Shown: positions 7,899 to 51,197 of the stretch, one piece after another | Layout: each line of letters starts with the position of its first letter | Numbering within the stretch: the first letter of the stretch is position 1 | NCBI GenBank assembly: GCA_017525855.1 | Contig: JAFXSE010000118.1 | Span: 124,001 to 188,000 of the forward strand | DNA from: Bacilli bacterium | GTDB lineage: Bacteria; Bacillota; Bacilli; RF39; UBA660 | Direction: 5' to 3' | DNA length: 64,000 nt | The notes under the pieces: model-generated | What the model was told of the DNA's origin: nothing | What the model saw: only the letters and a program-made list of their open reading frames with translations | Databases searched by the model: none | Position numbers and translations under genes: made by a program

Positions 7899-9299
7899 TT
7901 ATTCCAAAGATATATCAGTCTTTAGAACTTCAATGACAGGCCGAACGCCATTGGCAAAGTCCACGTGGTAATTCTCGAGATCTCTGCTGTCGCCATACAC
8001 CTCCCACACGGTGAAATCATTGGACACATAAGACGTTTCTAACCAATAATAGCATGCTCCCCCTGAACATCCTCCTGATGTCTTTGAATAAGCACTATCT
8101 TCCATTAGGTATTCGCAACTATCTAATTCTCCGTTTGTAAAACTTCCTACTGTTCCACCACAACTTTTATTTATTTCTTGTACTGTTAAGAGTCTAGCTA
8201 CTCTATCTGTATAGTTGAATGGATTCTCTATTGTATTTGAACCATAATCTGTAGTTGCAGCACCTTGTTCATTTACTATTGTTCTTGATGTACTCTTTAA
8301 ATTTATGTTTTCATTTGCCCATGTACTCCTTGTTGGAAGACTTGGTAAAAGTGTTACTGGTCCGTGCCAGTTTTCTATTGCGCTATTTTCATAGTAATAT
8401 GCTGTTCCTGATGTTCCTATATTTTTATGGTATATAAGTACTGCATAATTGCTATCAAACTGGTCTGTTCCATCAACTGTTCCTGTATATAAGTCTGATA
8501 CATAATAGAATCTCTCATAGTCACCATTTCCTGATACATCACAATCTAAGGCATATCCTCCGCTTTGACCATTTGTTAATTGTCCGTTTGTTAGTTTACT
8601 TGAATCTGTATGTCCATATGTTATAATCGCTCCTTGTGCATAGCCTTTTGCTCGGCAACCATAACCACTATTACTGTTACATGTTTCTGTATTTAGAGTT
8701 TCTGCTTTTTTACATACTGGATAATTATGTGCCACTTCTGTAATATTATTATCCGCTTGGACATAATTGATAGTAAAGTTCAAATTAAGTGTTACTTCTT
8801 CTACATCATTTTCTAAATTATCTCCATCTTTATATTTAATTTCAAATTTAATAGGTTCAGTTGTATTATGTTTTAAAACATCATTTACTGATATTTCTTC
8901 TCCAGCAGCTGGTTTATCATAATTTAGACTATATTCAACTACATCCTGATATGCAGCAGGTATTGTTATAGGTGTAATACTTCCAATTTTAGCATCTATT
9001 GTGCCACTGTTAACAGCATCCACTTTATACCAAAAGCTTTCACCTGGACTAAGTGTTACATTAAGGCTTACTTTTGTATCTCCAACTAAAGATACTTTAG
9101 TATTATCAGAACTTACTAAATTAGCGAAATGAACATTCCAACTATTCTTAGATATTTTAGTAGTACCAGTAATACTTAATACAGACTGTAAATAGGCATA
9201 ACCAAGTCCTATAGAAACAAGCAAAAAGAAAACTAAAACTAAATATAGTTTTCTCTTAGTACCTCTACTTTTATATCTACGTCTATTATATTTTTTCAT
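7899..9299 (-). CDS. Membrane-anchored surface protein, probable DGR target with C-terminal variable region
   Basis: A 466-residue exported protein. A basic N-terminus is followed by a membrane segment (residues ~17-38, ending 'SIGLGYAYLQS'), then a beta-sandwich-like region (residues ~40-180), then a Cys-containing domain (~190-466). The domain from 'VCKKAETL' onward is paralogous to the DGR target at 47238-48197, sharing 'ITYGHTDS', 'GYALDCD', 'ERFYYVSDL', 'DSNYAVLIY' and 'ENWHGP'. The last 50 residues, 'VWEVYGDSRDLENYHVDF' then 'GVRPVIEVLK', look like the variable edge of a C-type-lectin-fold DGR target. Base composition of this end is visibly GC-richer than the rest of the gene. Function is probably ligand binding at the cell surface. 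Confidence 0.85.
   Translation of the reverse strand: MKKYNRRRYKSRGTKRKLYLVLVFFLLVSIGLGYAYLQSVLSITGTTKISKNSWNVHFANLVSSDNTKVSLVGDTKVSLNVTLSPGESFWYKVDAVNSGTIDAKIGSITPITIPAAYQDVVEYSLNYDKPAAGEEISVNDVLKHNTTEPIKFEIKYKDGDNLENDVEEVTLNLNFTINYVQADNNITEVAHNYPVCKKAETLNTETCNSNSGYGCRAKGYAQGAIITYGHTDSSKLTNGQLTNGQSGGYALDCDVSGNGDYERFYYVSDLYTGTVDGTDQFDSNYAVLIYHKNIGTSGTAYYYENSAIENWHGPVTLLPSLPTRSTWANENINLKSTSRTIVNEQGAATTDYGSNTIENPFNYTDRVARLLTVQEINKSCGGTVGSFTNGELDSCEYLMEDSAYSKTSGGCSGGACYYWLETSYVSNDFTVWEVYGDSRDLENYHVDFANGVRPVIEVLKTDISLE
7936..8035 (-). repeat. DGR-type variable region VR1 (no cognate template in window)
   Basis: This GC-rich block at the 3' end of the surface-protein gene aligns at codon level with the variable repeat at 47275-47380. 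Shared landmarks are the TGGTTAGA.ACG lead-in, GTG..., TAT/TGG, GTN, GGC, ...AGC and the end CGN-CCT followed by ATTGAAGTTCTAAAG. It differs from the template at 46861-46966 at many silent and non-adenine positions and is one codon shorter, so that template is not its source. Boundaries are approximate. Confidence 0.7.
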
Positions 9300-28556: not shown

Positions 28557-30289
28557 TACACAACGTCTCCTATTCGTAACTTTCTTATTTCTTCGGCAAG
28601 TTTTGCTTGTTCAAGAGGATCAACTTCATTTTTCATTTTCTCCTCTATATGTTTTCTTTGTTTTTCTTTACTATATTCTCTAATAACTTTAAAATAAGTA
28701 AATAAAACATCTTGAGTAACTTCATCAACATAATTATTATTTAATATACTATCAAGTGAAGTAATTAACTCTTTTTTATTTTGCATATAAGTATAAAAAT
28801 CAGCAATATTTATCATCCCATATGTTTTATAATAATATATTATTTCTTGTACTAGTATTCTCACATCTTCATCTGGTAAAAGAAGTCTTTCTCTTTCTAC
28901 TTCACTTATAACCCATTCATTAGTAAGCATATAATATATTACTTGTTCTATAGCTTGCCTATACTTATTTTTTCTTGCTTGCTTTTTTATGCTTTTAACT
29001 TCAATTATCTCTTTTGGCTTAGCATTTTTCTTTAGCTCTAAAAACTTTTTGTCCAAGGTATTATACCCTAAATCAAATTCTTTTGCAAGTCTTTTCAAAA
29101 TTATTTCAATACGAATTTCATCATTTACATTAAGTAATTCTTCTAATACTTTATTAATATAATTTGCCTTTTCTATGTCACTTTGAAAATTAACATTATT
29201 ACGCATAACTCTAATTTTGTAATCATTATAATTTTCTGCTTGTTCAATATAACTTAAAAAACGAGTCTTTCCCTCTTTTAATATAAAACTATCAGGATCA
29301 TCATCATTAGGCAAAGTCACTACTTTAACTTCTATGTTTTCTTTAAGAAATTCCTCTCCTATTTTATATGCCGCATTCTGCCCTGGTTTATCGCCATCTA
29401 AACATAAAACAATATTTGTTGAAAGCCTTTTTATAAGTTTCATCTGTTCATGAGTTAGAGCCGTTCCCATCAAAGCAATAGAATTATCTAGCCCTATTGT
29501 ACTTGCTCTTATAACATCCATGAACCCTTCCATTACAATTAAATATTTATTCAATCTAACAGCTTCTTTTGCTATATGATAATTATATAATTGTTCACCT
29601 TTAATAAATATTGGAGTCTCTTTAGTATTTACATATTTACTTTCAGAACTATCTTTATATATTCTTCCAGAAAACCCAACAACTTTACCAGCTATATCAA
29701 ACAAAGGGAACATAATTCTATCTTTATATATATCATTATTATTAGTAGACAAGCCTATCTTATTAAGATCCACAATATCATATTTCTTTTTTATCAACAA
29801 TTGAGTTAAATCATTAACATTAGGTAAAGATAACCCTATCTGAAACTTTCTAATAACTTCTTTATCAAGTCCTCTTTTTTCTAAATAACTTCTTGCCTCT
29901 ATACCTGCTTGAGACAATAAATTATTCTGATAATACTTACTAGATAACTCATATGCTTCATAAAATTTAGTATATTTAGTATTTTCCTTTTTTAATTTTA
30001 CTGTTTTAGTATCTACTCCTACTCTATCACCTAAGTACTTAAGCGCTTCATTAAAACTCATTTTATCATAGTCCATCAAAAACCTAAAAACATTACCAGT
30101 CGCGTGACATGTAAAACAAGTATAAATCTGCTTTTCACGGGAAACAGACATAGAAGGATTAGTATCATCATGAAATGGACAAATACCAAAAAAGTTTTTA
30201 CCTCTTTTAATAAGAGATATTCTTTCACCAATAATATCAACTATATCTGTTTTGCTACGTATTAAATTACTTAGTGATTGTTCATTCAT
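28556..30289 (-). CDS. dnaG: DNA primase
   Basis: Makes RNA primers at the replication fork. The protein has about 577 residues. The N-terminal CHC2 zinc-binding domain has 'CPFHDD' and '[11 protein letters not shown]'. The TOPRIM catalytic core has '[11 protein letters not shown]' and '[19 protein letters not shown]'. The C-terminal helical domain contacts the replicative helicase. The start at 30289 is preferred because GGAG lies 8 bases upstream and the protein then begins as other primases do ('[10 protein letters not shown]'). An ATG 18 bases earlier is less likely. Confidence 0.97.
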
Positions 30290-30340
30290 ACCATTATCTC
30301 CAAACATACCTATTATGTCATATTTTACTTAATATTTCAA

Positions 30341-32227
30341 TTAATTTAATGATTTTATCTTATTATTTAAACTACTCTTTAATATTTGAATATCAGAATG
30401 TGATAAATAAGAATTATAAATTAAAGAATTAAATAATTTATCTTGATTACTAATACTATAACAATCTAGTGCTGTTAAACATCTCAAAACTTTATTTCTA
30501 GATATTAATACTCCACCAATATTATATTTATTATCATCTTGATAATTTTTATCAAGTTCCTTAATCATATCACATTCTAAAACATCATTAGAAATACTTA
30601 ACATAAATGAATCATCTAAATATTTCTTTATATCTTTATTCTGATATTTATCAGTCTCAGAACAACAACTATCATCTAGATATTTATCTTTAATAAAGAA
30701 TGAATTCTCACTTAATAACTCTTCATTTATTTTTTTTACATTAACATCATCTAAAATTAGATTACTAATATGAATTCTTTTAACCAGTGTATTTCCATAT
30801 TGTATATAATTATCATGTTTAATAATAATATCACTACAATCTTCTTCTATGTAATGATCTATAATATCTAAACTCTTAAAATCTAAAAGATAAGGCACAT
30901 TCTTATGATTAATTTTTATACCATAGTAACTATACATATTTAATAATTTATCTAAATAATCATTATTTATAAATAATATTTGATAATTAATATCAATAAG
31001 ACTAACTATATCTACATCATATTTACAAAGTAAATCAACATTCTTTAAGTAATTATTTAAAACTGTATTATCTATTAAAATATCAATATTATAATTTATA
31101 ATATCATTATTTAAATAATCTTTATGTAATAAAGAAACAACACTTGATAAATCTAGACTCTTACATAAATATATAATTCTTTTTAGATTATTACTAGATA
31201 AATATATATTATTATTAGAAAGTAATTTCATATTATTTTCTAAAATATCAAAATTAATACTATTAATATTATCCATTTTTTCTAATAATTCATAATGATA
31301 TTCTCTCATTATATATTTTAATTTTTCTAATGGACCATACTTAATAGTTTTATTTAGTGCTAAATGTGCACTTCTTCTTGCAATTGACTCAATAATATCT
31401 AGATCATCATTTTTAAATAAGTACTCAATACTGTTACTAGGTATAAATTCTTTGTTTAGTTTTCTTTCTAACTCAGACATTTTTTGAATTTCAGGAATCA
31501 AAGTATTATTTTCTTTTCTAAGTCTATTTATTTCAGATTTAACTTCCTTTATTTTTTTCTCAAGATGTACAAAAAGTCCTCTTTCAACTATTAGTGCAGC
31601 AGTAGCTCTTTGATATTTATCTTGGTAATACTCAGCAAGATTAAACCATCCCTCAACTGCATTATATAACATAAGTACAATAGATCTATGTTTACTATCT
31701 ACTTCGTGTAATAAAGAGGCATAATAAGTTTCATAAATAAACCAAGATAAAAATGCAAAATCATGAGATAAATCAAAATAATTTTCAAAATCCTTATGAT
31801 TAAAATGCTCTTTAAAAGTGGGTAAAAACTTAAACTCAAAATCATTTTTTTGCTCTTCAGTTAGAGTTTTACTAAGTTCATCATTATTTTTAACATGATT
31901 ATACTCATAAAAAGCCATGATCTCACAATAGTTATATTCTTTATCTTTTAATCTATCACAATCCCTAATTAAATTACTTAATAAAGATATATATTTTTCA
32001 TGAACTTCTTTACTTTGAAAAAAATCATGTGATATAGCTATAGCTTTTCTTAATTCCATAATATCTAAATTTTTCAAAGTGTTAATAGAATCCACTAACC
32101 TAGATTGTCCAAACTGACTATCAGCTTTTTCAAGTATTTTTTCAACCCTTACTAATAAATCATAATTATCAATATAATATTGATTATAAGCAACTTTCTT
32201 TTTCAAAGAATCAATATACTTACTCAT
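30341..32227 (-). CDS. Hypothetical helical protein
   Basis: I do not recognise this protein of about 628 residues. It has no signal or membrane segment. The first half is helical, with a probable coiled coil around residues 205-255 ('KKIKEVKSEINRLRKENNTL'). The second half (~300-620) is a run of short Asn/Leu/Ile-rich units such as 'NNIYLSSNNLKRIIYLCKSL' that look repeat-like, possibly a solenoid. The start at 32227 is chosen by the AGGTG site 6 bases upstream. It overlaps the upstream gene by 8 bases and lies just before dnaG, so both may be expressed with the dnaG-rpoD operon. Confidence 0.75.
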   Translation of the reverse strand: MSKYIDSLKKKVAYNQYYIDNYDLLVRVEKILEKADSQFGQSRLVDSINTLKNLDIMELRKAIAISHDFFQSKEVHEKYISLLSNLIRDCDRLKDKEYNYCEIMAFYEYNHVKNNDELSKTLTEEQKNDFEFKFLPTFKEHFNHKDFENYFDLSHDFAFLSWFIYETYYASLLHEVDSKHRSIVLMLYNAVEGWFNLAEYYQDKYQRATAALIVERGLFVHLEKKIKEVKSEINRLRKENNTLIPEIQKMSELERKLNKEFIPSNSIEYLFKNDDLDIIESIARRSAHLALNKTIKYGPLEKLKYIMREYHYELLEKMDNINSINFDILENNMKLLSNNNIYLSSNNLKRIIYLCKSLDLSSVVSLLHKDYLNNDIINYNIDILIDNTVLNNYLKNVDLLCKYDVDIVSLIDINYQILFINNDYLDKLLNMYSYYGIKINHKNVPYLLDFKSLDIIDHYIEEDCSDIIIKHDNYIQYGNTLVKRIHISNLILDDVNVKKINEELLSENSFFIKDKYLDDSCCSETDKYQNKDIKKYLDDSFMLSISNDVLECDMIKELDKNYQDDNKYNIGGVLISRNKVLRCLTALDCYSISNQDKLFNSLIYNSYLSHSDIQILKSSLNNKIKSLN

Positions 32228-33194
32228 TATAATCACCTGTTTTCACTAAAACTTTATCACCACTATCAAAACTCTTTATAATATTATCTATCTCAATTTG
32301 TGCATTCAAAAACTCATCTGTTTCAAGGTGTTTTTTTAGTTCTTTTTTCATCCTACGATACTTATTCATTCTAGTTATTAACTCATGTCTATATTTCTTA
32401 TCACTATCTACTTTTTTAGTAAATAAAGAACATATAATAACAACATTAGGAGTTAAAAAATGAAACACTACTCTTTGCTGATTAGATCTAAGTTCATAAA
32501 ACTCAGACAACTCATTACTAAATCTTTTTAATCCCTTAAACTCCTGTGTTTTAATAGAATTAATCATATTAATTAAAGTCTGCTGTTGTTTATTTTTTCT
32601 CATATCTTTTATTATAGGAGATAAATTAAGAGAATCTGTAAAATCTAATCCTTCAGGAAGATAAAAAACACAAAAATCATCAGTTTTAGGAATTTCTATT
32701 TCTTCAATTTCATAAGTATTATAATCAACTAACAATTCAAATAAATTCTCTAATTGTTCAATATCATTATCAAAAGTACCTTCATTATCCTCAAGACGAA
32801 TATCATAATATGACTCTAATTCTCTTCTTACAGCAAACAATATTTTTTTAATTTCCCTATTATGTTCAATGCTATCTTTTTTAGGTAATAACCTTAACTC
32901 TATCATCTCATCAATTGTTTTACAATGAAGTAAAGCCGAAATATTAATAGAAAAATTATTTTTTTCTTGATGAACACTCTCTTCTTCATTATCATGTTTT
33001 AATTCAGCATATGAATAATTTACTGGAACAATATTTCTATTATTATCTATACTATTTTGATAATTAGTATCCATAATCTTCATTAAAACCACTTTCTTCT
33101 CTTCTAAAGATAAGGCTTTATATTCTTGACTATCAAGTATTCTATCTACATTAGCAATATATCCATATTGATTAATATAACTTAAAACATCCAT
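32220..33194 (-). CDS. Hypothetical protein with C-terminal RelE/HigB-like region
   Basis: A 324-residue cytoplasmic protein. The N-terminal ~200 residues are helical and unfamiliar. The region around residues 225-300 resembles phage Gp49/HigB-like toxins of the RelE fold: 'ELSEFYELRSNQQRVVFHFL' then 'NVVIICSLFTKKVDSD' and 'HELITRMNKYRR' follow the family pattern of 'yElR... Rv.yff... ivll.gF.KK'. No separate antitoxin gene is next to it; the N-terminal part or the coupled downstream gene might serve. The start at 33194 has GGGGG 7 bases upstream. Confidence 0.6.
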   Translation of the reverse strand: MDVLSYINQYGYIANVDRILDSQEYKALSLEEKKVVLMKIMDTNYQNSIDNNRNIVPVNYSYAELKHDNEEESVHQEKNNFSINISALLHCKTIDEMIELRLLPKKDSIEHNREIKKILFAVRRELESYYDIRLEDNEGTFDNDIEQLENLFELLVDYNTYEIEEIEIPKTDDFCVFYLPEGLDFTDSLNLSPIIKDMRKNKQQQTLINMINSIKTQEFKGLKRFSNELSEFYELRSNQQRVVFHFLTPNVVIICSLFTKKVDSDKKYRHELITRMNKYRRMKKELKKHLETDEFLNAQIEIDNIIKSFDSGDKVLVKTGDYNE

Positions 33195-34875: not shown

Positions 34876-36280
34876 AATTATTTACACGTTGTCTTATCAT
34901 TTCCGTTGACTCAGTAATTCTAGAAAAAGTATAACCATTTTCTTTTCCATACTGAATAATTCTTCTTAACGCATCTCTTGTATACCACTTAATATCATGC
35001 ATTAATACCATATTTACTTTATCATGAGAAAGTTGACCAACAACATTATTATAAACAGTATCAGCACTTCTTGCACGTCCTGCATCATCGCTATCAACAT
35101 TCCAATCATAATATTTATATCCACTTGATAATAAACTTTGAGTAAGTGTTGACATAATTCCCACGGAATATCTACGGCTTACAGTATTACTACTTCCACC
35201 AGGAAAACGTACAAGCATACTAGTCTCTCCTGTTATTCTCTTAATTCTATCCTGAACTAATTTTAAATCACTCCAATATGCATCAACTGATCTATAAACA
35301 ACTGCATAATCATGACTTGCTGTATGAATAGCAACAGTATGTCCTTCATCATACTCACGCTTTACAAGTGAATCATCACCTTTATTAGTAATAAAGAATG
35401 TTGCTTTTACACCTTCTTCTTTTAAAATATCTAAAATAACATCAGTAGTACCAGTTTGAGGCCCATCATCAAAAGTTAAATAAATAGTTCCTTTACCATC
35501 AGCCTCTTTTACATAAACCGTCTGTTCAGCTGTAGCAGTATTACCAGCTTTATCGCTTACTTCATACTTAAGAGTATATTTACCAATAACATTAGTATTA
35601 ACCTCTCCACTTATCTTTACAGAAGAATCTAAATCACTATCACAATTATCTACAACACTATAATTCTTTGAAAAACTCTGTCCAACAACAACATATACAA
35701 CACTACTAAGGTTTATTACAGGTTTTTCTTTATCTTTATATATTAATTTACGAGTGACAACAGAAGAATTACCACTACTATCTGAAACAGAATAAACAAT
35801 CGCATCTTCATCTTTTCTTACTTCAATTTTATTTGTTATATCACCATCATAATTATCAAAAGCACGAGCCCCATCATCTTTATATACAGAATTAGGACAC
35901 ACATATGTATTAACATCACCCACTAAAGTTATCTTAGGAGATGAATTATCTACTACCTTTACTTTTCTTATTACAGAAGACTTAAAACCACCAAAAGAAA
36001 CACTATATTTTATCTTATATATACCAATTTTTTTACTATTTACTTTTCCAACTACACTTACCTTATCAGTTAAATCCTTACCAATTATTTTAGCAGTATA
36101 GCCAGGTTCATTAAATTTTTGTTTATAATTTAAAACAATAGTTTCTCCCTTCTTTAATTCTATTTTTGGAAAGAATATAGAATATACAATAGTTATAATT
36201 GATAAAACTAATAAAGAAACTCTAACTATTGTTCTTAAAACACACCAAAACTTATTACTCCCATCACTTACTAAAAGCAT
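34874..36280 (-). CDS. Membrane-anchored polysaccharide deacetylase with Ig-like repeats
   Basis: A 468-residue cell-surface enzyme, probably deacetylating peptidoglycan or another N-acetylated glycan. An N-terminal membrane anchor (residues ~12-33) is followed by three DUF5011/HYR-like beta domains (~40-260; repeated 'GEVNTNVIGKYTLKYEVSDK' type text). The NodB domain (~265-465) has all motifs: MT1 'TFDDGPQ', MT2 'HTASH', MT3 'RFPGGSSN', MT4 'DWNVDSDD' and MT5 'VLMHD'. The active-site Asp-His-His metal triad is intact. It is monocistronic, with its own terminator. Confidence 0.93.
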   Translation of the reverse strand: MLLVSDGSNKFWCVLRTIVRVSLLVLSIITIVYSIFFPKIELKKGETIVLNYKQKFNEPGYTAKIIGKDLTDKVSVVGKVNSKKIGIYKIKYSVSFGGFKSSVIRKVKVVDNSSPKITLVGDVNTYVCPNSVYKDDGARAFDNYDGDITNKIEVRKDEDAIVYSVSDSSGNSSVVTRKLIYKDKEKPVINLSSVVYVVVGQSFSKNYSVVDNCDSDLDSSVKISGEVNTNVIGKYTLKYEVSDKAGNTATAEQTVYVKEADGKGTIYLTFDDGPQTGTTDVILDILKEEGVKATFFITNKGDDSLVKREYDEGHTVAIHTASHDYAVVYRSVDAYWSDLKLVQDRIKRITGETSMLVRFPGGSSNTVSRRYSVGIMSTLTQSLLSSGYKYYDWNVDSDDAGRARSADTVYNNVVGQLSHDKVNMVLMHDIKWYTRDALRRIIQYGKENGYTFSRITESTEMIRQRVNN

Positions 36281-36344
36281 AATACCACCTAATAATATTT
36301 TACATTTATATTATCCCTTTGTAAATAATAAAGTATACGCATTT

Positions 36345-45505: not shown

Positions 45506-45534
45506 AAAAAAAGAAACACCTATTACAATGTTTC
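45506..45534 (-). terminator. Terminator at the Rpn-type gene end
   Basis: Minus-strand stem GAAACA / TGTTTC (45534-45529 and 45518-45513) with the stop codon in the loop, followed by TTTTTTT. Confidence 0.65.
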
Positions 45535-46437
45535 TATTTCCTCTTTTGTAAGTCCAGTTGATTTAGATATTATTTCTATATCTACACCATTATCCTTGAA
45601 ATTCTTAGCAACTTCTAATCTAGCCAAGTGTTCACCTTCAGCTCTTCCTTCAGCTCTTCCTTCAGCTCTTCCCTCAGCTCTTCCCTCAGCCCTTCCTTCA
45701 GCTAATCCTTCTTTTCTAAATTGAGCTCTTAAAGAGTTCTCTATAAATTCATTATCTTGCTCCGCTGTTACAAATTCATAGAATTCAGGATCTTCATTTA
45801 TTTTTTTTACTTCTTCCATAAACTTACTTATCACCTTATCCTTCTTTGATAGATTATTTAACTCTTCAGGTTTTAAATCAAGCATTATTAAATACTTATA
45901 CTTATCTATCAATTTTTCATCTTTAGAATACCATAAGTTAAGGTAATAATCCATATTTAATTCATATATAATAAAGTTATTTACAAAATTTTTACCTTTA
46001 TCATCCCTTACTTTATATATCCGTAAAGCCTCTTCATCATGAAACCTATTTTTTTCTTTATATAAATTAATCATATTGTATGTAAGATTAATCTGAATAA
46101 ACTCCATCTCCTCATCATATTGTTTTCCCCTTAACACTTCTCTTGAATAAGAATTACATATAAAAGCCATATTCCTAGGTCTTACAAAATCTTGCAAATA
46201 ATTATTTACTTCTATATGTATATTTTCTTTATCAGTCTTTACATGAAAATCAAAATGTTTTCTCCTAATATAAATATTACCATTATTCTTCTCTAAATTT
46301 AGATATATTATTTCTTTTATTTTAATATTTAATATACTTTCTATTAAAGCTATAAGTAAATCTTTATTCTCCTCCTTCATAAATACTTCCTTAAAAGTAA
46401 TATCATATCTACACGTATAAAACTCTTTTTCCTCCAT
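45523..46437 (-). CDS. Rpn/PD-(D/E)XK nuclease family transposase-like protein
   Basis: A 304-residue protein of the PD-(D/E)XK 'putative transposase' (Rpn, PDDEXK_2) family, linked to DNA breakage and recombination. The nuclease core is near the N-terminus: 'YDITFKEVFMKEENKDLLIA' and 'HFDFHVKTDKENIHIEVNNY', where Asp and the 'HIEVN' Glu form the active site. The tail has a run of 'RAEG' units from a 12-bp repeat, then 'ARLEVAKNFKDNGVDIEIIS'. It lies exactly where a DGR reverse transcriptase would be expected. A remnant of the same tail occurs at 50889. Confidence 0.85.
   Translation of the reverse strand: MEEKEFYTCRYDITFKEVFMKEENKDLLIALIESILNIKIKEIIYLNLEKNNGNIYIRRKHFDFHVKTDKENIHIEVNNYLQDFVRPRNMAFICNSYSREVLRGKQYDEEMEFIQINLTYNMINLYKEKNRFHDEEALRIYKVRDDKGKNFVNNFIIYELNMDYYLNLWYSKDEKLIDKYKYLIMLDLKPEELNNLSKKDKVISKFMEEVKKINEDPEFYEFVTAEQDNEFIENSLRAQFRKEGLAEGRAEGRAEGRAEGRAEGRAEGEHLARLEVAKNFKDNGVDIEIISKSTGLTKEEIETL
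45636..45707. repeat. Six tandem 12-bp repeats in the Rpn-type gene
   Basis: Plus-strand unit CTTCAGCTCTTC repeated six times with small changes (CCTCAGCTCTTC, CCTCAGCCCTTC, last unit CTTCAGCTAATC). It encodes the in-frame Gly-Arg-Ala-Glu run. Units are a multiple of three, so copy number can change by slippage without breaking the gene. Confidence 0.9.
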
Positions 46438-46498: not shown

Positions 46499-46660
46499 CT
46501 AGAAAAAGAGAAATTTTAAATATTTTATTTTATAATGAAATAAAGAATACATAATAGCAATGTCATCATTAAAAACATCATAAAATATTCCAGACTTAAT
46601 TACTACTACATATTCTTTATATTTTATTTTATAACTATTGTAGGTGTCTATAATTTTCAT
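46499..46660 (-). pseudogene. Truncated MutS domain-I-like (MSL-type) DGR accessory gene
   Basis: A 53-residue frame with a good AGAGGTG ribosome site. 'KEYVVVIKSGIFYDVFNDD' and 'IAIMYSLFHYKIK' match the start of the MutS mismatch-binding domain I, where the pattern is '...R.G.FYE.F..DA...'. Stand-alone MutS-like N-domain proteins are known accessory proteins of some DGRs, placed near template and reverse transcriptase. The domain should run on for another 50-plus residues, but here it stops after 'YLKFLFF', and only ~60 bases remain before the next gene. I read it as the 5' stub left after a deletion that also removed the reverse transcriptase. Confidence 0.7.
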
Positions 46661-46860
46661 ATACTACACCTCTATTTAATTTTTTTTGTTATAGGCATAG
46701 GGAATCTTCACTTTTCAGATATCTTACTAACCAAATCATCCCATCTATAACTATATTTCATCACGAAGATGAGGACAATACTTGTTTTCCCAGGCTTTTC
46801 ATTTTTAAGTTCTGTACTACTCTTATACTCCTCCAAAAATTCATAGTTTCAGGGAAAGAT
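46661..46860. other. Template-repeat flank, no gene
   Basis: Between the template repeat and the MutS-like stub there are 200 bases with no believable gene. In other DGRs this stretch belongs to the template RNA. A frame crossing the template (46761-47042) continues here but is not supported. Confidence 0.5.
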
Positions 46861-46966
46861 GCGGGACGGAGCCCATAGTTCGTCGAGTTGGAAGCATTGT
46901 TATTGTTCAGGTTGCGGTTGTTGCCATTGACGTTATACACGTTGTTGGAATTAGACGAGTTGGGCG
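46861..46966 (-). repeat. DGR template repeat (TR)
   Basis: A 106-bp block, GC-richer than its surroundings, whose minus strand is dense in AAC/AAT codons, for example 'AATGGCAACAACCGCAACC'. It aligns gap-free with the variable repeat at 47275-47380. Of 19 differences, 16 are at template adenines; 16 of 33 adenines differ but only 3 of 73 other bases. The exceptions are one C to A, one T to G, and one C to T in the 3' GGGCTCCGTCCCGC segment, the presumed initiation-of-mutagenic-homing (IMH*) part. This is the standard signature of adenine-specific mutagenic retrohoming. No RT gene adjoins it. Confidence 0.93.
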
Positions 46967-47111
46967 ACAGAAAGAATCCGTCATTATATATTAGTATTAC
47001 CCTAGAAATATTTTCCAAATATTTCCAATTACATATTATCAAAAGATATATTATTATTCAGTCTTTTCATTATATTTTTTTGCATTTTACACTCAATATT
47101 GTAAATTGCTT

Positions 47112-47172
47112 ACAAAAAAATCGGTCTTCTGTCGTCCGATATTTTCCTTAGGAAAATTCGCCCTCCTGAAGA
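47112..47172 (-). terminator. Structured 3' end downstream of the variable repeat
   Basis: On the minus strand, ~100 bases after the variable repeat, GTCTTC (47172-47167) can pair with GAAGAC (47129-47124), enclosing a near-perfect inverted repeat ATTTTCCT-N-AGGAAAAT (47141-47157). The alternative hairpin CGGAC...GACCG is followed directly by ATTTTTTT, giving a terminator for the target gene. DNA hairpins just downstream of VR are known to help DGR retrohoming, so this may have a double role. Confidence 0.55.
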
Positions 47173-47237
47173 CATTGTACTCTTCGTTTGAGTATTCCTG
47201 GTTTTCCTTTTTTCTACCCTTATTATATTGTAGATAT

Positions 47238-48197
47238 TTATTCTAGTGAGATATTAGACTTTAGAACTTCAATTGCAGGACGGAGCCCACCGTTCGACGA
47301 GTTGGAAGCATAGCTAACGCTCAGGTAGCGGCTGTGGCCATCGACGTAATACACGATTCTGGAATAAGACGAGTAGGGCGTGTCTAACCAATATCCGTAT
47401 GGTCCACTACCTACTTCATATCTAGTATTCTCCATTAGAAATTCACATTTTGTATGAAGAGCAGAAGTTGAACCACATCCTGTTACTACTTCTTGATATG
47501 TTAATAGTCTTCCACCATATGATGTATAGTCATAGTTTGCATATGTGTTTCCGTCTCCTGATGTTGCACCAATATCATCTACTAATTGTCTAAAGCTATT
47601 ACCACTACCATCTCTTTTTAATGTGTTTTTCCAATCAGTACTTAATGGCATATTGCTCATAAAATCTGAACTAGGTCCATGCCAGTTTTCATTTGATGAA
47701 TAATAAGCAAGTGTTGAAGAAGGTGTAGCAACTTTATTTGCTACATTACTATAATAGATTAACACTGCATAATTACTATCATAGGCAACAGTACTATTTG
47801 TTGTATCATAGTACATTAAATCACTGACATAATAGAACCTCTCATTATAATTGGTTCCTGTTCCTGTTAAATCACAATCTAAAGCATATCCAGTACTTGT
47901 TCCACTTGTTAACTCTCCATTTACTAGTTTAGTTGAATCAGTATGTCCATATGTTATTGGTGAACCAGATGAATAGCCTGTAGCTGAATTTAGACAACCA
48001 CTAGTTCCTGAAGTATATTGACATGTTGTTTGATGTAGAGTTTCTGCCTTTTTACATACTGTTGTTGCTTTAGTATAACTATTTAGTTTTACATTATTTT
48101 CCATTGTTAAATCTTGATTTAAATAAGCATAACCTATACCTGATATTAAAACTATTGCACATATTATATATAATATTATTCTTTTATTTTTGCCCAT
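47238..48197 (-). CDS. DGR target protein, membrane-anchored, C-type-lectin-fold-like
   Basis: A 319-residue exported protein. A short basic start and a membrane segment ('IICAIVLISGIGYAYLNQ') are followed by a Cys-containing domain. This domain shares 'VCKKAETL', 'ITYGHTDSTKL', 'GYALDCD', 'ERFYYVSDL', 'DSNYAVLIYY' and 'ENWHGP' with the protein at 7899-9299. The C-terminus 'YSRIVYYVDGHSRYLSVSY' and 'GGLRPAIEVLK' is encoded by the variable repeat. Substitution of template Asn codons to Tyr, Ser, Asp, His and Val matches known DGR binding proteins. It probably displays a variable ligand-binding surface. GGAGAGAGG precedes ATG. Confidence 0.92.
   Translation of the reverse strand: MGKNKRIILYIICAIVLISGIGYAYLNQDLTMENNVKLNSYTKATTVCKKAETLHQTTCQYTSGTSGCLNSATGYSSGSPITYGHTDSTKLVNGELTSGTSTGYALDCDLTGTGTNYNERFYYVSDLMYYDTTNSTVAYDSNYAVLIYYSNVANKVATPSSTLAYYSSNENWHGPSSDFMSNMPLSTDWKNTLKRDGSGNSFRQLVDDIGATSGDGNTYANYDYTSYGGRLLTYQEVVTGCGSTSALHTKCEFLMENTRYEVGSGPYGYWLDTPYSSYSRIVYYVDGHSRYLSVSYASNSSNGGLRPAIEVLKSNISLE
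47275..47380 (-). repeat. DGR variable repeat (VR2), cognate to the template at 46861
   Basis: The 106 bases at the 3' end of the target gene match the template without gaps apart from 19 substitutions, 16 at template A. On the coding strand AAC has become TAC, AGC, CAC, ATC or AGA, and AAT has become TAT, GAT or GTT. The 3' part GGGCTCCGTCC is unchanged, as expected for the IMH end. Confidence 0.93.
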
Positions 48198-50888: not shown

Positions 50889-51035
50889 CTATAGTTTTTC
50901 TATTTCTTCTTTAGAAACACCTGTACATTCACTAATCATATCAATATCTATACCTTTGTCTTTTAATCTTCTTGCTACCTCTAGTACTCCCATTTTTTGT
51001 CCTTCTTTTATTCCTTTATCTTCTTCCATTAACAT
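50889..51035 (-). pseudogene. C-terminal remnant of an Rpn-type transposase-like gene
   Basis: About 48 codons: 'KGIKEGQKMGVLEVARRLKD' then 'KGIDIDMISECTGVSKEEIE'. This matches the tail of the gene at 45523-46437 ('RLEVAKNFKDNGVDIEIIS', 'STGLTKEEIETL') but lacks the nuclease domain. An AAGGAG site precedes ATG, so a short peptide could still be made. It is most likely the leftover of an internally deleted copy. Upstream DNA to 51197 holds nothing recognisable. Confidence 0.7.
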
Positions 51036-51197
51036 CATCTCCTTCTTTTTGAAAACGATGTTGTTATACAATGGACTTTATCAATTGTAAAATGGATAAC
51101 TTTTAAAATTCAAAATTAAAAGTGTCTAAATTATACAAAATTCCCATAATGATTTTAACAATTTCAGATAAAAAATATACTCTCATAAGTAAAATTG

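What the first reader, a model, noticed from the sequence alone, without database searches (positions are those of the whole stretch)
46861..47380. Diversity-generating retroelement: template and variable repeat with adenine-specific differences
Two 106-bp blocks in the same orientation, about 300 bp apart, align gap-free. On the coding (minus) strand 16 of 19 differences are at template adenines: 16 of 33 adenines changed against 3 of 73 non-adenines. The variable copy is the exact 3' end of an exported protein gene, and the template is packed with AAC/AAT codons. The unchanged GGGCTCCGTCC 3' end looks like the IMH/IMH* segment, with a C/T difference just after it. This is seen directly; mutagenic retrohoming as the cause follows from established DGR biology.
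Basis: partly seen in the sequence, partly recalled or inferred. Interest (0 to 1): 0.95.

Follow-up and report, generated by a model that had tools for sequence, protein, structure and literature searches.

The report
Gene-rewriting retroelement missing its reverse transcriptase
A bacterial gene for a predicted surface protein ends in a stretch that differs from a nearby template copy almost only at adenines, the mark of a diversity-generating retroelement, but the reverse transcriptase that would do the rewriting is absent from the surrounding 64,000 bases and was likely lost by a deletion.

Summary
It is a genuine DGR template/variable pair: all 33 template A lie at codon positions 1-2, and two homologous proteins from other assemblies differ from this one at 15 of 18 and 16 of 18 template-A codons and at 0 of 16 A-free codons.

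Close relatives carry VR gene - TR - spacer - msl - bAvd - RT. The window has VR, TR, a conserved post-TR spacer and only the first ~46 residues of msl, then a PD-(D/E)XK gene; no bAvd or RT was found in the 64 kb. So this is a 3'-truncated DGR that likely no longer diversifies by itself. RT supplied in trans is not excluded: no genome is held, and the window has a second target-family gene without a template. Two more RT-less TR/VR cassettes turned up in relatives. RT-less remnants and trans action are in print: a new member, not a new kind.

The parts
47238..48197 (-). Target gene: 319 aa, N-terminal helix (likely membrane or signal anchor), likely C-type-lectin-like body; weak DUF6273 match
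   Evidence: ORF; PF19789 E 2.8e-4, 21.2 bits, under the cut-off of 23.5; model pLDDT 87.3; C-type-lectin-like matches of middling Z
47275..47380 (-). Variable repeat (VR), residues 274-307 of the target, 57% G+C in a gene that is otherwise 31%
47278..47288 (-). GGGCTCCGTCC at the VR 3' end, IMH-like (label recalled from DGR biology, not tested)
46861..46966 (-). Template repeat (TR): 33 A, all at codon positions 1 and 2, mostly in AAC/AAT codons
46864..46874 (-). GGGCTCCGTCC at the TR 3' end, followed by C (T in the VR): IMH*-like (label recalled)
46661..46860 (-). Post-TR spacer; its inner part matches the spacer of a complete DGR (L068) at 86 of 123 columns; likely the RNA that an RT-Avd complex binds
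   Evidence: (z 10.9, 0 of 300 shuffles reach the score)
46499..46660 (-). Truncated msl: 53-aa ORF whose first ~46 residues are the N-terminus of the MutS-I-like protein of these DGRs (132-138 aa in L067 and L068)
   Evidence: 49% over 43 aa, E 2e-11; PF01624 E 0.0025, under the cut-off; tblastn 2.7e-7; clade HMM 2.9e-16; keeps 7 of 7 invariant columns that lie in the kept part; 5 more lie in the missing part
45523..46437 (-). PD-(D/E)XK (PDDEXK_2, Rpn-like) gene standing where bAvd and RT stand in relatives
   Evidence: PF12784 2.7e-14; no bAvd or RT found
7899..9299 (-). Second gene of the same target family (466 aa, P0029), with a G+C-rich 3' end (about 7935-8055, 48%) and no template copy found in the window

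Best explanation
The 3' end of this predicted surface-protein gene carries the adenine-specific signature of a diversity-generating retroelement whose reverse transcriptase and bAvd genes are absent from the window and were likely deleted, so the cassette likely can no longer rewrite its target by itself. How it likely worked (inferred from established DGR biology): TR plus spacer was transcribed, an RT-bAvd complex copied it with random bases opposite A, and the cDNA replaced the VR, changing up to 18 codons of a likely C-type-lectin-like binding face. How it now stands: TR, VR, spacer and the first ~46 codons of msl are shown to be there; the rest of msl, bAvd and RT were not found in the 64 kb, where close relatives carry them in that order. 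The current VR is then likely a frozen variant, unless an RT elsewhere in the genome serves it in trans.
For: A-specific gap-free pair, 16/33 A against 3/73 other bases. All template A at codon positions 1-2. P0003 and P0002 differ from the target at 15/18 and 16/18 template-A codons, 0/16 A-free codons, against 24/241 and 20/241 in the rest of residues 45-319. Near relatives G008 and G021 (helicase of 1038 aa 69% and 59-66% identical) hold complete VR-TR-msl-bAvd-RT. 22 RT-bearing DGR pairs of such genomes: 347/709 A and 15/1571 other bases changed. The msl fragment keeps 7 of 7 columns that are invariant in 13 relatives and lie in the kept part, and ends before the other 5. None of 144 RT proteins nor 4 bAvd proteins gives a credible hit in the window (best tblastn E 0.14 and 0.034); clade HMMs of RT and bAvd find nothing, msl 2.9e-16. 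RT-less pairs carry more non-A differences (window 3/73, L191 2/57, L200 1/66) than RT-bearing ones (15/1571, Fisher 0.022; 17/1834 with three pairs found later, 0.019), as expected once rewriting stops.
Against: Only 64 kb seen; no genome held, so an RT elsewhere is not excluded. The spacer is conserved and the target ORF is intact, which a long-dead element need not be. The non-A excess is small (window alone p 0.042; 0.17 if the C/T just past the G+C block is left out), and 4 of 22 RT-bearing pairs also reach 2.5% or more. Both sets were found by asking for A-specific differences, the RT-less ones at a looser threshold. An assembly join at about 46,500 cannot be excluded without reads.
Confidence: 0.8

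Rival explanations
1. Satellite cassette: TR, spacer and VR are still in use, driven in trans by the RT-bAvd of another DGR in the same genome.
For: Spacer kept (z 10.9 against L068; hits just after other DGR templates). A second target-family gene in the window without a template there suggests a template elsewhere. 116 of 243 genomes searched in the family of G008 hold a relative of the DGR RT at E 0.001 or better (not each shown to be a DGR RT). L200 in G121 is VR-msl-TR without RT while L201 in the same genome is complete. Trans action is reported for Thiohalocapsa (PMC10907252, passages).
Against: No RT known for this genome. Four genomes with many target-family genes have no DGR-type RT found (G002, G010, G011, G013; G002 and G011 have RTs of other types). 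Slight excess of non-A differences. The cluster of this protein holds 2 member sequences from 7 contigs, little variety for an active target, though the contigs may be repeat assemblies of the same samples.
Confidence: 0.33
2. Complete, active DGR, with the RT next to the template.
For: The pair itself.
Against: bAvd and RT found neither downstream nor elsewhere in the window; the msl gene is cut.
Confidence: 0.04
3. Not a DGR: two diverged paralogous segments or gene conversion, with adenine bias by chance or composition.
For: The window is 26% G+C and the target family has many paralogs.
Against: Probability of 16 or more of 19 mismatches on 33 of 106 positions 1.7e-7; one-sided direction (1/18 VR A); DGR-type spacer and msl start after the template; same pattern in 22 RT-bearing loci; relatives vary at the predicted codons.
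Confidence: 0.01

Closest known systems
Complete DGRs of uncultured Bacilli (L067 in G008/UBA7476, L068 in G021/RUG13689)
   Same: VR at the 3' end of the target gene, TR about 210 nt after it on the same strand, conserved spacer, msl next; A-only differences (21/40 and 20/41 A, 0/68 and 0/64 others)
   Different: They go on with full msl, bAvd and RT; here msl is cut after ~46 residues and bAvd and RT are missing. Their target proteins are at best remote relatives of this one (profile A1: L068 16.7 bits, mostly the last 40 columns; L067 no match).
Remnant TR-VR of Nostoc all3226 without a nearby RT (PMC7517822, passages) and incomplete DGR 3 and 7 of Thiohalocapsa PB-PSB1 (PMC10907252, passages)
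   Same: TR/VR homology or diversity kept where the RT is missing or disrupted
   Different: Other phyla; here the msl stump and spacer show where the element was cut
Treponema denticola target genes in isolates that lack core DGR parts (PMC4891356, passages)
   Same: Gain and loss of the DGR core with targets left behind
   Different: There RT and TR are both gone; here TR stays beside the VR
Bordetella phage BPP-1 DGR (established knowledge, recalled; gene order and spacer role of the bRT-Avd system from PMC12875486, passages)
   Same: A-to-N templated change of the 3' end of a C-type-lectin-fold gene; structured spacer after TR
   Different: Phage tail protein, avd before TR, RT present

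Membership tests
Diversity-generating retroelement | TR/VR near-repeat with differences confined to template adenines | tested here: met
   16/33 A, 3/73 non-A
Diversity-generating retroelement | VR in frame near the 3' end of a target gene, A at codon positions 1-2 | tested here: met
   residues 274-307 of 319; 33/33 template A at positions 1-2
Diversity-generating retroelement | DGR-type reverse transcriptase at the locus | tested here: not met
   none found in 64 kb by tblastn with 144 RTs and by clade HMM; so filed as an RT-less DGR remnant, not as a complete DGR
Diversity-generating retroelement | DGR-type reverse transcriptase elsewhere in the genome | not testable with these tools
   no genome held for the window
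Diversity-generating retroelement | Avd/bAvd accessory gene | tested here: not met
   no bAvd found in the window; present in relatives (PF22296 at about its cut-off)
Diversity-generating retroelement | Structured spacer after the TR | tested here: met
   sequence conserved with L068 (86/123 columns, z 10.9); structure from 3 sequences only: 10 of 43 pairs with changes on both sides
Diversity-generating retroelement | IMH/IMH* function | not testable with these tools
   identical 11-nt block followed by C/T; function untested
Diversity-generating retroelement | Ongoing site-specific variation of the VR | tested here: inconclusive
   two homologous proteins vary at template-A codons, but they are other genes; no reads at hand
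C-type lectin fold of DGR variable proteins | Structural match to known variable proteins | tested here: inconclusive

The most novel reading that the evidence does not exclude
In this family of uncultured gut Bacilli, RT-less DGR cassettes (VR, TR and spacer, with or without msl) are satellites: they recur (window, L191, L200) and parasitise or share the RT-bAvd of one complete DGR in the same genome, so one enzyme diversifies a dispersed set of lectin-like surface genes through several private templates.
Probability: 0.25. Interest if true: 0.65.

Novelty: new member of a known kind. Interest (0 to 1): 0.42.

Why it matters
It shows a DGR caught after losing its engine, with template, variable repeat, spacer and an accessory-gene stump still readable. 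That makes a concrete test case for whether RT-less TR/VR cassettes are fossils that fix a useful variant or satellites served in trans, a question on which the passages I saw give single examples. It also points to a target family with 26 copies of its variable end in one MAG as a place to look for remote targets, which a large contig-based survey says it would miss (PMC8144416, passage).

Tried and rejected
RT in the window: of the ORFs with a YxDD-like motif, 30347-32242 has no Pfam match, 34880-36310 is a deacetylase with Ig domains, 28562-30328 is DnaG; the rest were covered by the RT searches only. Phage origin: no confirmed relative of the target in viral contigs in two scans (5 and 19 pattern matches, none confirmed); neighbours are chromosomal housekeeping genes (rpsB, tsf and infC named from recall of the sequences; DnaG and DHH-DHHA2 by Pfam). 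Rfam: only three tRNAs. PHROGs: nothing firm for the target (best E 0.022).

Template for the second family gene (P0029) or for the 26 copies in G002: not found in the window nor in the G002 loci; a degenerate TR pattern gave 0 hits in G002, hits with 3 mismatches in 2 of 20 genomes and hits with 2 mismatches in 2 of 243 (where the backward control also hit once). In G002 the third bases of the variable codons are mostly C/T, in keeping with AAC/AAT templates, but synonymous changes are frequent, so one single template is not shown. The only RT of G002 over the Pfam cut-off reads as a group II intron type (QGGIISP motif, type recalled).

Spacer against L069: no similarity (score 18, shuffle mean 19.7). 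The pre-TR stretch gives only weak local scores (z 3.5-3.7) and scattered hits. A literature search with poor terms gave nothing useful. In one search the row L071 was read on the wrong strand; the totals printed there are void and were replaced.

Rows dropped before counts: four repeat fetches of the same loci (L135, L136, L137, L140) and the second pairs of L150 and L167; in the RT-less count the second pair of L191. Three RT-bearing pairs found later (L201, L202, L205) are added only. The finder demands at least 70% of mismatches on one base, so the baseline leans to A-specific pairs; it ran with p below 1e-4 and below 1e-3. The 20 loci were picked by hand because no RT was listed near their msl, 3 of the 20 do have an RT (L201, L202, L205), 1 has a fused RT end (L191), and several lie at contig ends where the RT may merely be cut off; 2 of the 20 (L191, L200) are RT-less with a pair.

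Full report
Observation. On the minus strand, 46966-46861 and 47380-47275 align without a gap over 106 nt, with 19 mismatches; 16 of 33 template adenines and 3 of 73 other bases differ, Fisher 1.7e-7. In the other direction only 1 of 18 variable-copy adenines differs. All 33 template adenines stand at codon positions 1 (16) or 2 (17) of the target's frame. The variable copy encodes residues 274-307 of a 319-residue protein, so 12 residues follow it. VR and TR are 57% and 50% G+C in a gene that is otherwise 31%.

Independent support from relatives. A search of 5.8 billion proteins gave 905 homologs of the target, 120 listed. The two closest others, P0002 and P0003, differ from the target at 16 of 18 and 15 of 18 codons whose template codon contains A, at 0 of 16 codons without template A, and at 20 of 241 and 24 of 241 residues in the rest of residues 45-319 (P0002 has one inserted residue in the VR, not counted). 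The template was read from the window alone, so the window's TR predicts which residues vary in other assemblies.

Complete elements in related genomes. One scan of genome contigs gave 51 loci with relatives of the target, in 22 genomes by handle. Pfam RVT_1 was over its cut-off in 8 of the 22; 5 of the 11 RT loci printed an IG...SQ motif before a Y/F-x-DD (L056, L057, L058, L061, L062), the DGR-type motif as recalled. By a 1038-aa helicase of the window (AddA-type by recall), G008 is the nearest of 20 genomes (69%), with G021 (59-66% in two pieces) and G002 (60%) next. G008 and G021 hold the order VR gene, about 210 nt, TR, 213-245 nt, msl (132-138 aa), bAvd (127 aa), RT (378-382 aa); Pfam names the small proteins MutS_I (1.1e-7, 2.6e-9) and bAvd-like (6.5e-10, 4e-10, just under and just over the cut-off). 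Over 22 RT-bearing loci with a pair, 347 of 709 template A and 15 of 1571 other bases differ; with three more found later, 398 of 814 and 17 of 1834. In 243 genomes drawn from the family of G008, 116 have a relative of this RT and 67 a relative of the target at E 0.001 or better, many of them weak.

What is missing here. After the TR the window has the spacer and a 53-aa ORF, 46499-46660, whose first ~46 residues are the N-terminus of msl: 49% over 43 residues to L067's (E 2e-11), MutS_I E 0.0025, clade HMM 2.9e-16. Of 12 columns invariant in 13 other msl proteins, 7 lie in the kept part and all 7 are kept; 5 lie in the missing part. Then comes a PDDEXK_2 gene. tblastn with 144 RT proteins gives nothing better than E 0.14, with 4 bAvd proteins 0.034 at an unrelated place; clade HMMs find neither in any window ORF of 30 aa or more. 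The standing of msl as a DGR accessory protein in the literature is recalled; the survey paper was not held.

The spacer. 46661-46860 matches the post-TR spacer of L068 at 86 of 123 columns, score 49 against a shuffle mean of 19.5 and maximum of 29 in 300 (z 10.9); L067 z 4.6 with one or more shuffles as high (maximum 35 against 34); L069 none. BLAST over all fetched loci gives L068 E 7.6e-10, L148 1.1e-4 (also just after its TR), L145 2.9e-4 and L174 7.9e-4 (RT loci where no pair was found) and L067 7.9e-4. A three-sequence fold gives 43 pairs, 10 with changes on both sides, suggestive only. In the bRT-Avd system the spacer recruits the complex and primes cDNA synthesis (PMC12875486, passages).

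Frozen or served in trans? For frozen: no RT found in the window; non-A differences are higher in three RT-less cassettes (window 3/73, L191 2/57, L200 1/66) than in RT-bearing ones (p 0.022, 0.019), a small and partly selected sample; four genomes with many target-family genes have no DGR-type RT found (G002, G010, G011, G013). L191 in G184, a genome not among the matches listed, has VR, TR and an msl start fused in frame to an RT end, a second deletion of the same kind. I take truncated and inactive by itself as best supported, trans service as the main rival.

Known or new. Remote targets, trans action and TR-VR remnants without RT are in print: Nostoc all3226 (PMC7517822, passages), Thiohalocapsa (PMC10907252, passages), Treponema denticola isolates (PMC4891356, passages). 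Roux et al. state that their survey would not detect targets remote from the RT (PMC8144416, passages). I make no claim that this locus is unpublished; by title and start of abstract, the listings show no paper on RT-less DGRs of Bacilli.

Noticed in passing
window 7899-9299 (-): Second gene of the target family (P0029, 466 aa) with a G+C-rich, VR-like 3' end but no template copy found in the window.
   Followed up: partly
L002-L011, L014, L015, L017, L020, L022, L026, L029, L032, L042 (MAG Lapin-016 bin61, G002): 26 distinct copies of the target family's variable end in one 1.2-Mb MAG (rabbit by its isolate name), hypervariable mostly at NNC/NNT codons, with no DGR-type RT or template found in the bin.
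   Followed up: partly
L191 (G184:C9): DGR with an internal deletion: VR, TR, then an msl start fused in frame to an RT C-terminal end (171 aa).
   Followed up: partly
L200 and L201 (G121): An RT-less VR-msl-TR cassette and a complete VR-msl-TR-bAvd-RT element in the same genome, about 75% identical over 1 kb of the target-gene region.
   Followed up: partly
window 45523-46437 and 50889-51071 (-): PD-(D/E)XK (Rpn-like) gene with a run of EGRA repeats, and a 60-aa ORF that resembles its C-terminal end by eye. A similar-looking gene follows the RT in L067 (9835-10812).
   Followed up: no
G089, G235, G239, G247: RT relatives interrupted by several stop codons, so decay of such RTs is not rare in this family.
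   Followed up: no
G080, G082, G102, G103, G112, G113, G131, G161, G210: Single open frames of 490-596 aa match both the RT and the msl profile, suggesting RT-msl fusion proteins in this clade.
   Followed up: no
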